A stretch of DNA of 64,000 bases from Pseudomonas sp. B21-056 (GTDB taxonomy: Bacteria; Pseudomonadota; Gammaproteobacteria; Pseudomonadales; Pseudomonadaceae): positions 3,472,001-3,536,000 of the forward strand of contig NZ_CP087203.1 in assembly GCF_026016325.1 (NCBI RefSeq), given 5' to 3'. This document shows positions 48,896 to 52,327 of this stretch, in pieces. Below the pieces are notes generated by a model. That model was not told where the DNA came from. It made no database searches and was given only the letters and a program-made list of their open reading frames with translations. How positions within the stretch are numbered: the stretch's first letter is position 1; each line of letters begins with the position of its first letter. The position numbers were made by a program, and so were the translations under genes.

Positions 48896-48985
48896 TGTGG
48901 GAGCGAGCCTGCTCGCGATGGCGGTGGGTCCAGCCACTGCAGCGTCGACTGATAGACCGCTATCGCGAGCAGGCTCGCTCCCACA
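48896..48985. repeat. REPIN unit 1 of a tandem series (GTGGGAGCGAG family)
   Basis: Left arm from 48896, right arm to 48985. The sequence between it and the next unit (ATTGGTACCAGACGCAGAATG...) recurs after the right end of the insertion sequence, showing a tandem array of about 133-base units. Confidence 0.88.
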
Positions 48986-49028
48986 GCGGATTGGTACCAG
49001 ACGCAGAATGTGTCCACTGAAGAACCAG

Positions 49029-49112
49029 TGTGGGAGCGAGCTTGCTCGCGATGGCGATGGGTCCAGCCACTGCAGCGTCGACTGATAGACCGCTATCGCG
49101 AGCAGGCTCGCT
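49029..49112. repeat. REPIN unit 2, split by the IS110 element
   Basis: Left arm from 49029. The right arm runs GCGAGCAGGCTCGCT to 49112 and is then interrupted; its last bases (CCCACA) lie on the far side of the element at 50293-50298. Joining the two restores the arm exactly. Confidence 0.9.
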
Positions 49113-49318
49113 TGTATGGTAGGACTTGAAGGGAGGAGGAGGGACAAGGTTCGCTTCTGACTGTTAGCCGCAGTACAGACCGTGGGAGATTTTACCCCTC
49201 CTCCTTTCACACCCAAGCGCCGATAAAGAATGCATCTGGCCTAGACCGACGATAGGAACAAGCCTGCGTCTCTGGGTGAACCCTTCAAGTGTTCAAACCT
49301 TAGCCCGGAGAGTTTTCA
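49113..49318 (+). ncRNA. Candidate bridge RNA region of the IS110 element
   Basis: The 206-base non-coding left end, upstream of the recombinase, is where IS621-type elements encode their bridge RNA. GTTCGCT at 49149-49155 matches the left target (GCTCGCT, one pyrimidine difference). GTGGGAG at 49182-49188 is the reverse complement of the right target CTCCCAC. For the donor, AGAAT at 49227-49231 matches the left donor and ACAAG at 49258-49262 is complementary to CTTGT of the right donor. Exact RNA ends and folding not determined. Confidence 0.65.
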
Positions 49319-50287
49319 ATGGCAATGCCGGTTCCCCTCGTCAAGCCGATTGTAGGTGTGGATGTCGCCAAGGATGAGTTGGTGATGTATCACGCCGAAA
49401 CCGATCAGCTTGAGATAGTCCCCAATAACAAAACTGCGATTAAGAAGTGGCTCAAGGCCTTGTCCATGCAGGTGGATATTGCCATTGAGGCCACCAATAT
49501 CTATCACCTGGAGTTCGCCGATCTGGCTCACAAGGCCGGCTGCGTGATCTACATGGTCGGTGGCTATGAGCTTAGTCACTACCGCAAAGGCGTGAACGTG
49601 CGCGCCAAAACCGATGCACTGGATGCTCGCCTGTTGGCCCGTTACCTGAAGAACGAAGGCCAGGAACTGCATCCCTGGAACCCGCCATCGCCCTTGTATC
49701 GCCGGCTCGTAAGCCTTTTCCGGCGCCGTGCGGCTGTGGTCCAGGCCCGTGTCAGTCTGAGCCAAAGCTGGGCGAACGAGCCGTTACTCAAAGCCGCGTT
49801 CAAACGCCAGATAGGCGCGATGCAACGGCTGGAAACCCTGGTCGAAAAAAAGATCCAGGATGAGCTGAAGGACGCAGGCTTGCTGGGTCAGCTCAAGCGC
49901 TGCATGAAAGTTGAAGGCATTGGCCTGTTGACCGGCGCCCGGTTGCTCACCTCGTTTCAGCGGGGGGATTTCAAAAATGCCGATGCCTTCATCGCTTTTC
50001 TGGGGCTGGACCTGCGCATATCGCAATCAGGGCGAAAACAGGGTCGCCGCTGCTTGACCAAACGAGGTGATCCAGAAGCTCGCCGACTGCTGCACAACGC
50101 AGCGATGTCGGCAAGGCGCACGGAGCGATGGAAGGGGTTCTATGAGGCGTTGCTGGCACGGGGACTAAGTACAACTCAGGCCATGGTGGCGCTGTCGCGC
50201 AAGCTTGCCCGCGTAGTATTCGCTCTGCTGCAGAATCAGAGCGAATACCTGCCAGAAAGGCATTTGAAGGCTAGTCATGCACCATAG
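49319..50287 (+). CDS. IS110-family recombinase (DEDD transposase)
   Basis: 322 residues, similar in length to IS621 (326). RuvC-like DEDD residues: Asp15 (GVDVAKDEL), Glu57 (AIEATN), Asp99 and Asp102 (KTDALDARLLARYL). The Tnp domain has the likely nucleophile Ser237 in ISQSGRKQGRRCLTKRGD. An HTH-like part lies in KVEGIGLLTGARLL. Predicted to use a bridge RNA to recombine the element into REP sequences. Its stop TAG overlaps the right end of the element. Confidence 0.93.
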   Translation: MAMPVPLVKPIVGVDVAKDELVMYHAETDQLEIVPNNKTAIKKWLKALSMQVDIAIEATNIYHLEFADLAHKAGCVIYMVGGYELSHYRKGVNVRAKTDALDARLLARYLKNEGQELHPWNPPSPLYRRLVSLFRRRAAVVQARVSLSQSWANEPLLKAAFKRQIGAMQRLETLVEKKIQDELKDAGLLGQLKRCMKVEGIGLLTGARLLTSFQRGDFKNADAFIAFLGLDLRISQSGRKQGRRCLTKRGDPEARRLLHNAAMSARRTERWKGFYEALLARGLSTTQAMVALSRKLARVVFALLQNQSEYLPERHLKASHAP

Positions 50288-50343
50288 AATCTCCCACAGG
50301 GGATTGGTGCCAGACGCAGAATGTGTGTCCACTGAAGAACCAG

Positions 50344-50432
50344 TGTGGGAGCGAGCCTGCTCGCGATTGCGGTGGGTCAGCCACTGCAGCGTCGACTGAT
50401 AGACCGTCATCGCGAGCAGGCTCGCTCCCACA
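50344..50432. repeat. REPIN unit 3 (GTGGGAGCGAG family)
   Basis: Left arm from 50344, right arm to 50432. It is the third unit of the series around the IS, between the insertion sequence and the end of fcs. Confidence 0.9.
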
Positions 50433-50443
50433 GGGTTGGGTGT

Positions 50444-52327
50444 TTAACGGACGAGAGTTGCCCGCAGGATCGACTCATCCTCGCCGCGATACAGCGCCTC
50501 GACTTTCGCCGCTCGCCATTGCAACACCGTCCGCTGGTTGATGGAGCCCTTGTCGGTGATTTCGCCGCGATCAATGGACGCCGGTTCATCGAGCAGTGCG
50601 ATCCACTCGACCCGGCTGGCGTTGCCACTGGCGCCCTGGTTGAGGCGTTGCAGCCAGTCGGCGAACCATTGGCGTACCGGCGCGCTGGCGAGCACCTGGG
50701 CATCACTGGTGTCTGCGGGCAGGCCCGACAGACGTCGGCATTCCGGAAGCCGCGGGAACACCAGGGCCCCCAGGCATTCGCGATCCGGCGCGGTCACCAC
50801 CAGGTCCTGGACGTAGGGCGTGCCCTCCAGCACCGCACGGTTGCGCAGCGGCCCGACGCTGACGAACACGCCGGAGGACAGCTTGAAATCCTCGGCAATT
50901 CGCCCGTCGAACATCAGCCCCAACTGCGGATCAGCCGAATCGGCCAGCTTGATCGCATCGCCCGAGCAGTAGAAACCGTGCTCGTCGAACACCTCGGCCG
51001 TCTGCTGTGGCGAGCGCCAATAGCCGGGCATGATGTGTGGCCCGCGGAAGCGCCCTTCGAACTTGCCGTCCACCGGCACCAGTCGCACTTCGCAGCCTGG
51101 CGCCGGCAGGCCGATGTAGCCGGCCATGGACAACGGCCCGGTGGTAAAGGTGCAGGACGGAGACGCTTCGGTCATGCCCAGCCCGGCCATCATGCGGATC
51201 CGTTCGCCGCAATGCTGCTCGGCCACTTTGTCGAGCCGGTCCCAGGTGCTCTGCGACAGGCCCGCGGCGGCAAAGAAAAACAGGCTGACGCGCTCGAAGA
51301 AACGTTCGCGTAACTCGCCATCCTGCTCCAGGGCACTGACCAGTTCTTCCCAGCCCTTGGGCACGGTCAGGTAAGCGGTCGGCGAAATCTCCTTGAGGTT
51401 GCGCAAGGTTTCGGCGAAGCCCTGGGCGGTGGGTTTGCCGTCGTCCAGGTAGAACGTACCGCCGTTGTACAACACGATGCCGACGTTATGACTGCCACCA
51501 AAGGTGTGGTTCCACGGCAACCAGTCCACCAGCACCGGCGGTGCTTCGCCGAACACCGGAAAGGTCTGCAACAGCATCTGCTGGTTGGCACAGAGCATGC
51601 GTTGGGTGGTGATCACTGCCTTGGGCAGTTTGGTGGAACCTGAGGTGAAGAGGAACTTGGCGATGCTGTCAGGGCCGGTGGCGGCAAAGGCCCGTTCAGC
51701 CTCGGCACCGCCCGGTTGTGCCAACAGGCTGGCAAAGCTTGCCCTGGAGCGACCCGCCATCTCGCCATCCACGGTGATCAACGGCACATTCGCCGGCAAC
51801 ACCGCATTGACCGCACGCTCGAACGGCGCGGCCTTGCTGACGAACACCAGCCCCGGCTGCAACAGGTCGCAGACATGCCGCAGCTTGGCAAAATCCTGGG
51901 ACAACAAGGAATAGGCCGGCGACACCGGGCAATAGGGAATGCCGGCGTACATTGCGCCGAGGGCCATCTGCAGGTGTTCGATGTCATTGCCCGACAGCAG
52001 AGCCAGGGGTTTGTCGGCAGACAACCCATAAGCCAGCAGGCCCTGGGCAATGGCGCGGACGCTGTCGAGCATCTCGGCATAGCTGACCCGACGCCAGTCA
52101 CCGCCGTTCTGGCGGGCGGCGATAAAGGTCTGTTGCGGGCGCACGTCGGCCCAATGCACCAAACGATCGAGCAAGCGCGTCGGCAACGGCGCCAGGGCTT
52201 CCAGGGAGCGCATGTGCAGGATGCCCTGCTCCTCACTGACCTCAACCGCGGGGTGACCAATCGACACCTGGCGATAACGCCCAGGGCCGGGTTGGGAGGA
52301 CGATCTGAACTCGGAACTCACGTACAT
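50444..52327 (-). CDS. fcs: Feruloyl-CoA synthetase
   Basis: 627 residues from the ATG at 52327; a GTG at 52321 has better spacing to GGAGG and is an alternative. ANL family acyl-CoA ligase: AMP-binding P-loop FLFTSGSTKLPKAVI (about 226), LPWNHTFGGSHN, AGLGMTEASPSC and the hinge region CSGDAIKLAD/GRIAEDFKLSSG. It activates ferulate (and coumarate, caffeate) with ATP and CoA. It is third in the ech-vdh-fcs order on the minus strand, 140 bases past vdh. Confidence 0.9.
   Translation of the reverse strand: MYVSSEFRSSSQPGPGRYRQVSIGHPAVEVSEEQGILHMRSLEALAPLPTRLLDRLVHWADVRPQQTFIAARQNGGDWRRVSYAEMLDSVRAIAQGLLAYGLSADKPLALLSGNDIEHLQMALGAMYAGIPYCPVSPAYSLLSQDFAKLRHVCDLLQPGLVFVSKAAPFERAVNAVLPANVPLITVDGEMAGRSRASFASLLAQPGGAEAERAFAATGPDSIAKFLFTSGSTKLPKAVITTQRMLCANQQMLLQTFPVFGEAPPVLVDWLPWNHTFGGSHNVGIVLYNGGTFYLDDGKPTAQGFAETLRNLKEISPTAYLTVPKGWEELVSALEQDGELRERFFERVSLFFFAAAGLSQSTWDRLDKVAEQHCGERIRMMAGLGMTEASPSCTFTTGPLSMAGYIGLPAPGCEVRLVPVDGKFEGRFRGPHIMPGYWRSPQQTAEVFDEHGFYCSGDAIKLADSADPQLGLMFDGRIAEDFKLSSGVFVSVGPLRNRAVLEGTPYVQDLVVTAPDRECLGALVFPRLPECRRLSGLPADTSDAQVLASAPVRQWFADWLQRLNQGASGNASRVEWIALLDEPASIDRGEITDKGSINQRTVLQWRAAKVEALYRGEDESILRATLVR

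What the first reader, a model, noticed from the sequence alone, without database searches (positions are those of the whole stretch)
49113..50292. IS110-family element with readable bridge-RNA guides, inserted in a REP arm
Seen directly: the element interrupts a REP right arm exactly at a CT dinucleotide, and joining the flanks restores the arm. Its 206-base left non-coding end contains GTTCGCT (49149-49155), close to the left target GCTCGCT, and GTGGGAG (49182-49188), the reverse complement of the right target CTCCCAC. AGAAT and ACAAG further on fit the left and right donor ends. Known for IS621: a bridge RNA from the left end has target- and donor-binding loops with such guides and a CT core. 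Inference: this is a REP-programmed bridge-RNA recombinase not necessarily described.
Basis: partly seen in the sequence, partly recalled or inferred. Interest (0 to 1): 0.8.

Follow-up and report, generated by a model that had tools for sequence, protein, structure and literature searches.

The report
REP-targeting jumping gene with tracking guide
This mobile DNA element carries a short stretch that closely matches the repeated DNA in which all 11 of its insertions in this genome sit, and across 47 genomes that stretch varies together with the repeat, so the element likely makes a guide RNA that picks its landing sites by base pairing, as known for the relative IS621.

Summary
The element (49113-50290 plus one CT) is an IS110-group insertion sequence interrupting a REP arm at a CT core. 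Joining the flanks restores a unit nearly identical to its intact tandem neighbour. All 11 insertions in the genome sit at AGGCTCG|CT|CCCAC, of which 1162 intact 14-base copies remain.

The left end holds guide-like stretches in IS621 order: left target guide AGGTTCG (49147-49153), right target guide GTGGGAG (49182-49188), donor guides AGAAT and ACAAG. Both target guides occur together in order in 1 of 20,000 shuffles.

The decisive test was comparative. In 113 copies from 47 genomes the left guide follows the left target (0 of 20,000 permutations as good); among 220 window tests only the guide gives a strong signal. It predicts the chosen REP dialect beyond host abundance (93 of 116 copies testable; 0 of 20,000 simulations). 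Donor ends stay constant.

Caveats: no RNA was measured; folding does not clearly open the guides; several copies mismatch; tree-corrected tests are underpowered. The kind is known (IS621, ISPpu10, ISPa11). New here, as far as the papers searched show, is the series of guides following host REP dialects.

The parts
49029..49112 (.). Left part of the interrupted BIME/REP unit; left target AGGCTCG 49104-49110 and CT core 49111-49112
49113..50290 (+). IS110-group insertion sequence (1180 bp counted with one CT)
49113..49120 (+). Right-donor end TGTATGGT; TGTATG found in 113 of 113 copies examined (the extraction was anchored on it)
49124..49133 (+). 5' arm ACTTGAAGGG of predicted outer RNA stem (3' arm 49281-49290)
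49134..49143 (+). 5' arm AGGAGGAGGG of predicted target-loop stem (3' arm 49196-49205); covaries in relatives
49147..49153 (+). Predicted left target guide AGGTTCG, followed by CT 49154-49155
49156..49179 (+). Predicted hairpin between the two target guides
49182..49188 (+). Predicted right target guide GTGGGAG, reverse complement of CTCCCAC
49196..49205 (+). 3' arm of target-loop stem
49217..49268 (+). Predicted donor-binding loop, strongly conserved in 44 left ends
49227..49231 (+). Predicted left donor guide AGAAT
49258..49262 (+). Predicted right donor guide ACAAG (would pair with CT|TGT)
49281..49290 (+). 3' arm of outer stem
49319..50287 (+). Recombinase gene, 322 aa; D15 E57 D99 D102 and S237 invariant in the 27 proteins of A3 (residue roles taken from IS621)
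50283..50290 (+). Left-donor end CATAGAAT, overlapping the stop codon
50291..50297 (.). CT core and right target CTCCCAC, rest of the REP arm

Best explanation
This is an IS110-group insertion sequence whose left end likely makes a bridge RNA that is predicted to steer its recombinase, by base pairing, into one arm of REP repeats at a CT core. [quoted passage not shown] A second, conserved loop (AGAAT, ACAAG) would hold the element's own joined ends CATAGAAT|CT|TGTATG. Shown here: the insertion, its precision, the protein family, the guide sequences, their covariation with targets over relatives, and the constant donor ends. Inferred from IS621: the RNA, the circular intermediate, the pairing and the strand exchange. 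Among relatives the left guide has changed many times and tends to match a common REP variant of the host.
For: Target precision: 11 of 11 insertions in this genome (10 complete, 1 read as split by a later insert) are in AGGCTCG|CT|CCCAC; 1162 intact copies of this 14-mer remain, 0 of the reversed control. Covariation: 113 copies, 47 genomes, mean 5.84 of 7 identities against 4.71 (sd 0.12) when targets are permuted among genomes, 0 of 20,000 as high; also 0 of 20,000 within the close (21 genomes) and the distant (26) group. Register control: 110 of 234 seven-column windows had few enough gaps to test, in both directions (220 tests, 44 sequences, 2,000 permutations each); only the guide window stands out, z 8.97, next 3.6. 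Abundance control: 93 copies in 39 genomes, 6.09 against 5.71 expected (sd 0.065) if copies took host dialects by abundance, 0 of 20,000; 33 of 39 genomes above expectation. Examples: strain DTU12.3, guide AAGCCAG, 3 of 4 copies in AAGCCAG, which is 42 of 909 counted sites; G254, guide AGACTCG, 2 of 2 in AGGCTCG, 45 of 1345. Right guide: GTAGGAG with CTCCTAC in 4 of 4 copies, GTGGGAG with CTCCCAC in 104 of 106. RNA: left end folds better than 200 of 200 shuffles, z -2.68; the target-loop stem changes in a compensated way, AGGAGG/CCTCCT, GGTGGG/CCCACC, GGCGGG/CCCGCC. Protein.
Against: No transcript, circle or recombination was measured. Only 47 of 113 copies match 7 of 7 exactly, 64 with wobble, 97 at 6 or more with wobble. 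Wobble-compatible mismatches are not clearly enriched (26 against 19 non-wobble transitions in 100 copies; 38 against 29 in all 113). G128 and G383 have a one-base shift in the guide and match at most 2 of 7 without wobble in the fixed register. G139 and G004 carry AAGCCCG in hosts rich in AAGCCCC (231 and 439 sites), and 2 of 3 and 1 of 1 copies sit there. The three G080 copies have right guide GTGAGAG with right target CTCCCAC, one mismatch. 23 of 116 copies were left out of the abundance test (15 target outside the five dialects, 8 host with fewer than 20 sites). Tree-based independent-pair tests go mostly the right way, with one contrary pair at guide position 5, but have too few pairs for significance. 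The guides are not clearly more open than the rest of the RNA in single-sequence folding. Seven of 44 target-loop stems pair poorly by my arm-matching rule. No sigma-70-like promoter was found around the right end.
Confidence: 0.93

Rival explanations
1. The recombinase protein itself reads the REP arm (sequence or hairpin) and the left-end match is incidental.
For: The protein and the target could co-evolve; related elements share both. Tree-corrected tests are underpowered.
Against: The left-end stretch is nearly identical in letters to the target, not merely correlated with it, in the one register that the bridge-RNA model predicts. Sister elements differing in the guide differ in target the same way: DTU12.3 AAGCCAG against G252 AAGCCCG.
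Confidence: 0.04
2. Guide and target agree only because each host has mostly one REP type and elements simply land where sites are many.
For: In 18 of 28 testable genomes the guide equals the host's commonest dialect.
Against: With host abundance held fixed the guide still predicts the landing dialect, 0 of 20,000 simulations.
Confidence: 0.02
3. The structured left end is a regulatory leader or antisense-RNA region controlling recombinase expression, as proposed for ISPpu9, with no guiding role.
For: ISPpu9 has a 244-nt 5' untranslated region and two small RNAs that were found experimentally to tune its expression (PMC8450116, passages).
Against: Regulation does not explain why a 7-base island varies with the insertion site while its neighbours are conserved. 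The two roles need not exclude each other.
Confidence: 0.03

Closest known systems
IS621 (E. coli) bridge-RNA recombinase, PMC11208160 and PMC11208158
   Same: IS110 group, RNA region in the left end, two guides per loop in the same order and strand sense, CT core, REP targets, ATA/TAT subterminal repeat of the group, DEDD plus serine protein
   Different: Recombinase 26% identical in the Foldseek alignment; other REP sequence; here an outer stem encloses both loops in the predicted fold, against a separate 5' stem-loop there; RNA not demonstrated
ISPpu10 and ISPpu9 (P. putida KT2440)
   Same: IS110-family elements in Pseudomonas, 7 of 7 copies each in REPs (PMC1525189, passages); a bridge RNA was predicted for ISPpu10 (PMC11208160, figure legend seen)
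   Different: Sequences not compared here; ISPpu9 copies are flanked by an AG repeat (PMC8450116, passages)
ISPa11 (P. aeruginosa), IS1111 group with seekRNA, PMC11187229
   Same: REP target chosen by an element-encoded RNA
   Different: RNA lies downstream of the gene and the guide order is reversed
ISEc11 / ISXne4 natural redirection, PMC11187229
   Same: Related elements with changed guides use changed targets
   Different: One pair of IS1111 elements in the passages seen; here 47 elements with small steps among REP variants and an abundance control

Membership tests
IS110 family, IS110 group | DEDD (PF01548) and Tnp (PF02371) domains with conserved serine | tested here: met
   D15 E57 D99 D102 S237 invariant in 27 proteins; residue roles from PMC11208158 passages
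IS110 family, IS110 group | Long left and short right non-coding end | tested here: met
   206 nt against 3 nt before the CT
IS110 family, IS110 group | Short core shared by both junctions | tested here: met
   CT
IS110 family, IS110 group | Short ATA/TAT subterminal repeat | tested here: met
   CATAGAAT and TGTATG in all 47 elements examined (extraction anchored on these motifs); here the exact inverted match is TATGGT/ACCATA, 6 bases; motif definition from PMC11208160
Bridge-RNA elements | Left-end RNA with target and donor internal loops | tested here: inconclusive
   Consensus of 44 supports stems and an open left guide; single-sequence folding does not clearly open the guides
Bridge-RNA elements | Guide sequences that covary with the target | tested here: met
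Bridge-RNA elements | Transcribed RNA bound by the recombinase | not testable with these tools
   needs small-RNA sequencing and binding assays
Bridge-RNA elements | Promoter rebuilt at the circle junction | tested here: inconclusive
   scan of 50150-50450, the right end as integrated, found none; the joined junction was not scanned; TAGAAT next to the core is invariant in 47 but may be donor sequence
IS1111 group | Subterminal inverted repeats of 7-17 bp and long right end | tested here: not met
   right non-coding end 3 nt; longest exact inverted match between the first and last 45 bases is 6

The most novel reading that the evidence does not exclude
This clade is a REP-tracking parasite: its recombinase type, donor loop and ends stay put while the seven-base left guide has been rewritten at least 24 times over 47 elements to follow the REP dialect of each host, so that insertion-sequence guides and REP families evolve together.
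Probability: 0.45. Interest if true: 0.65.

Novelty: new member of a known kind. Interest (0 to 1): 0.5.

Why it matters
It supplies a natural series of one recombinase type with many guide-target pairs differing by a few bases and a constant donor half, inside genomes that often offer hundreds of near-matching sites. That makes questions about mismatch tolerance, natural retargeting and REP evolution directly testable, and shows how such an element has more than a thousand repeat sites open to it in one genome. It also gives genome-based support for the bridge-RNA model that does not rest on the published alignments.

Tried and rejected
Rfam scan of the region gave no relevant family; all nine hits are under their gathering scores. 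Wobble as the route of guide change: not clearly supported, 26 against 19. Extended 13-base complementarity of the right-guide region to the right junction (pair I13): by eye not kept in relatives, which share the 7 target bases plus up to about three more, so not counted. Tree-corrected independent pairs: mostly the same direction, too few pairs. Phage and plasmid carriage: no match of 60% or more identity in 72,556 plasmid or 50,697 phage records; a pattern scan of viral contigs gave no relative. Structure model of moderate to low confidence (mean pLDDT 67.9), used only as support. Six of the 51 genomes with a relative were not used (G005, G009, G125, G237, G283, G390): one match partial, the others below the listing. 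A third named strain (L022) was not used, its match being partial. G091 was left out of the RNA alignment because its donor loop is missing; two further left ends were identical to others.

Full report
The sequence. The element lies at 49113-50290, with a CT dinucleotide at both junctions, 49111-49112 and 50291-50292. It interrupts the second of three tandem BIME units. The flanks joined make a 135-nt unit that aligns with the intact neighbour 48896-49028 except for four substitutions and a 2-nt gap, with a single CT. The one gene, 49319-50287, encodes 322 aa with the DEDD and Transposase_20 domains, above the cut-off of NCBI's IS110 RNA-guided transposase model (169.2 against 140 bits). Its best solved relatives are IS621 (E 1.6e-21) and ISCro4. 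A model of moderate to low confidence (mean pLDDT 67.9) finds chains of the same two first by Foldseek.

Copies in the genome. Twelve matches are read as eleven insertions: ten complete copies, and one copy cut into bases 1-51 and 44-1180 by a later insert of about 39 kb. All ten complete copies are flanked by AGGCTCG|CT and CT|CCCAC in the same orientation; the two halves of the cut one keep one such flank each. The genome still holds 1162 intact AGGCTCGCTCCCAC sites and 1317 GCTCGCTCCCACA sites, with none of the reversed controls. Ten of the eleven reading frames are full length.

The guides. In the left end, AGGTTCG (49147-49153) and GTGGGAG (49182-49188) stand in the order and strand sense of IS621's left and right target guides (PMC11208160, sections 5 and 6 read). 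Both together, in order within 80 nt, occur in 1 of 20,000 dinucleotide shuffles.

Relatives. A protein search of 398 genomes of the genus found relatives at E 1e-60 or better in 51, this genome included. I used 45 of these, with up to three copies each, plus two named strains (P. zanjanensis SWRI12, Pseudomonas sp. DTU12.3): 113 copies from 47 genomes. The left end is much conserved around a seven-base variable island at the left guide (alignment of 44). That island follows the target: mean 5.84 of 7 identities, permuted mean 4.71, sd 0.12, 0 of 20,000 as high, and likewise inside the close and the distant group. Sliding a seven-column window along the left end, 110 of 234 windows had few enough gaps to test, each in two directions; of these 220 tests only the guide window stands out, z 8.97, the next 3.6. 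Examples of guide and commonest target: G160 AAGCTCG and AAGCTCG; G233 AAGCCCG and AAGCCCG; DTU12.3 AAGCCAG and AAGCCAG; G070 AAGCCGG and AAGCCGG; G080 AGCCGCC and AGCCGCC; G094 TAGTTCG and AAGTTCG. The right guide varies little: GTAGGAG goes with CTCCTAC in 4 of 4 copies, GTGGGAG with CTCCCAC in 104 of 106 and with CTCCTAC in 2; the other 3 of 113 are G080, right guide GTGAGAG and right target CTCCCAC.

Is it only abundance? I counted five REP dialects in the 47 genomes. With each copy drawing a dialect by host abundance, the expected match is 5.71 of 7 (sd 0.065); observed is 6.09 in 93 copies of 39 genomes, 0 of 20,000 simulations as high; 33 of 39 genomes lie above expectation, six below. 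With wobble counted as a match: 6.46 against 6.30, 0 of 20,000; 28 above, 9 equal, 2 below. Of 116 copies (the 113 and three more of the named strains) 23 were left out: 15 with a target outside the five, 8 in a host with fewer than 20 sites. Only 3 of this genome's 11 insertions entered the tests. The guide equals the host's commonest dialect in 18 of 28 genomes where it is exactly one of the five; permuted mean 7.6, maximum 16, 0 of 20,000 as high. On the recombinase tree the guide changes at least 24 times. Independent-pair tests have at most six pairs on supported branches; they agree mostly in direction, with one contrary pair at guide position 5, and none is significant. So shared ancestry is not fully excluded for the host-tracking claim.

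Results against. Exact 7 of 7 matches are 47 of 113; with wobble 64; six or more with wobble 97. G128 and G383 carry a shifted guide. G139 and G004 carry AAGCCCG in hosts rich in AAGCCCC. G334, G385, G290, G267, G100 and G139 fall below expectation. Wobble-type mismatches are not clearly enriched. G186 has a non-REP left flank.

The RNA. The left end folds better than 200 of 200 shuffles. Consensus folding gives an outer stem around two stem-loops, an open left guide and a weak hairpin over part of the right guide. The target-loop stem shows compensated changes; by my arm-matching rule 37 of 44 sequences form six or more pairs in a row there and seven do not. The outer stem pairs 10 of 10 in 22 of 44 and 7 to 9 in the rest; in G356 it is rebuilt with other bases, 10 of 10. 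In this sequence alone the best fold pairs the left guide; opening both target guides costs 6.8 of 72.9 kcal/mol, and over the 44 sequences the guides are hardly more open than the RNA as a whole. The donor ends CATAGAAT|CT|TGTATG are the same in all 47 elements (the extraction was anchored on parts of these motifs and no copy lacked them, the three G080 copies having the right one 200 bases after the stop codon). No promoter-like site was found around the right end.

What is known. REP targeting by ISPpu9, ISPpu10 and ISPa11 (PMC1525189, passages), bridge RNAs over the IS110 family with guide-target covariation in 5,511 pairs and a predicted ISPpu10 bridge RNA (PMC11208160, sections 5 and 6 and passages), the structural mechanism (PMC11208158, passages), and a natural redirection of ISEc11/ISXne4 (PMC11187229, passages and section 13) are in print. 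Searches of open-licence papers listed none that by title or abstract start treats this clade or guides following REP dialects; most subscription papers and bioRxiv preprints are not held.

Verdict. An ordinary kind of element by type, with unusually clean genome evidence that its predicted bridge RNA chooses the site, and a natural retargeting series worth testing at the bench.

Noticed in passing
L011 (bases 44-1180 of the element) and L012 (bases 1-51); insert in L121 and L122: One copy of the element is split by an insert of about 39 kb flanked by the same 8 bases (CAGTCAGA). Of 29 frames of 220 aa or more, ten were scanned: an AAA ATPase, a phage minor tail protein, baseplate J and a tail-fibre domain pass Pfam's cut-off, an integrase-core match lies just under it: likely a transposable prophage sitting inside the guide region.
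   Followed up: partly
L050 (genome G091): A relative whose left end is only 125 nt: the target guides are present but the donor-loop region is missing; a natural donor-loop deletion.
   Followed up: no
L038 (genome G186): Left flank is not a REP arm but repeats the right flank (CTCCCACATTTGGTAG on both sides), suggesting a secondary rearrangement.
   Followed up: no
L091-L093 (genome G080): The CT at the right end lies 200 bases after the stop codon, against 5 in this element, in all three copies examined, and the guide reads an AGCCGCC target.
   Followed up: partly
L044/L079 (genome G066): Two copies lie in tandem, 404 bases between the two gene matches.
   Followed up: no
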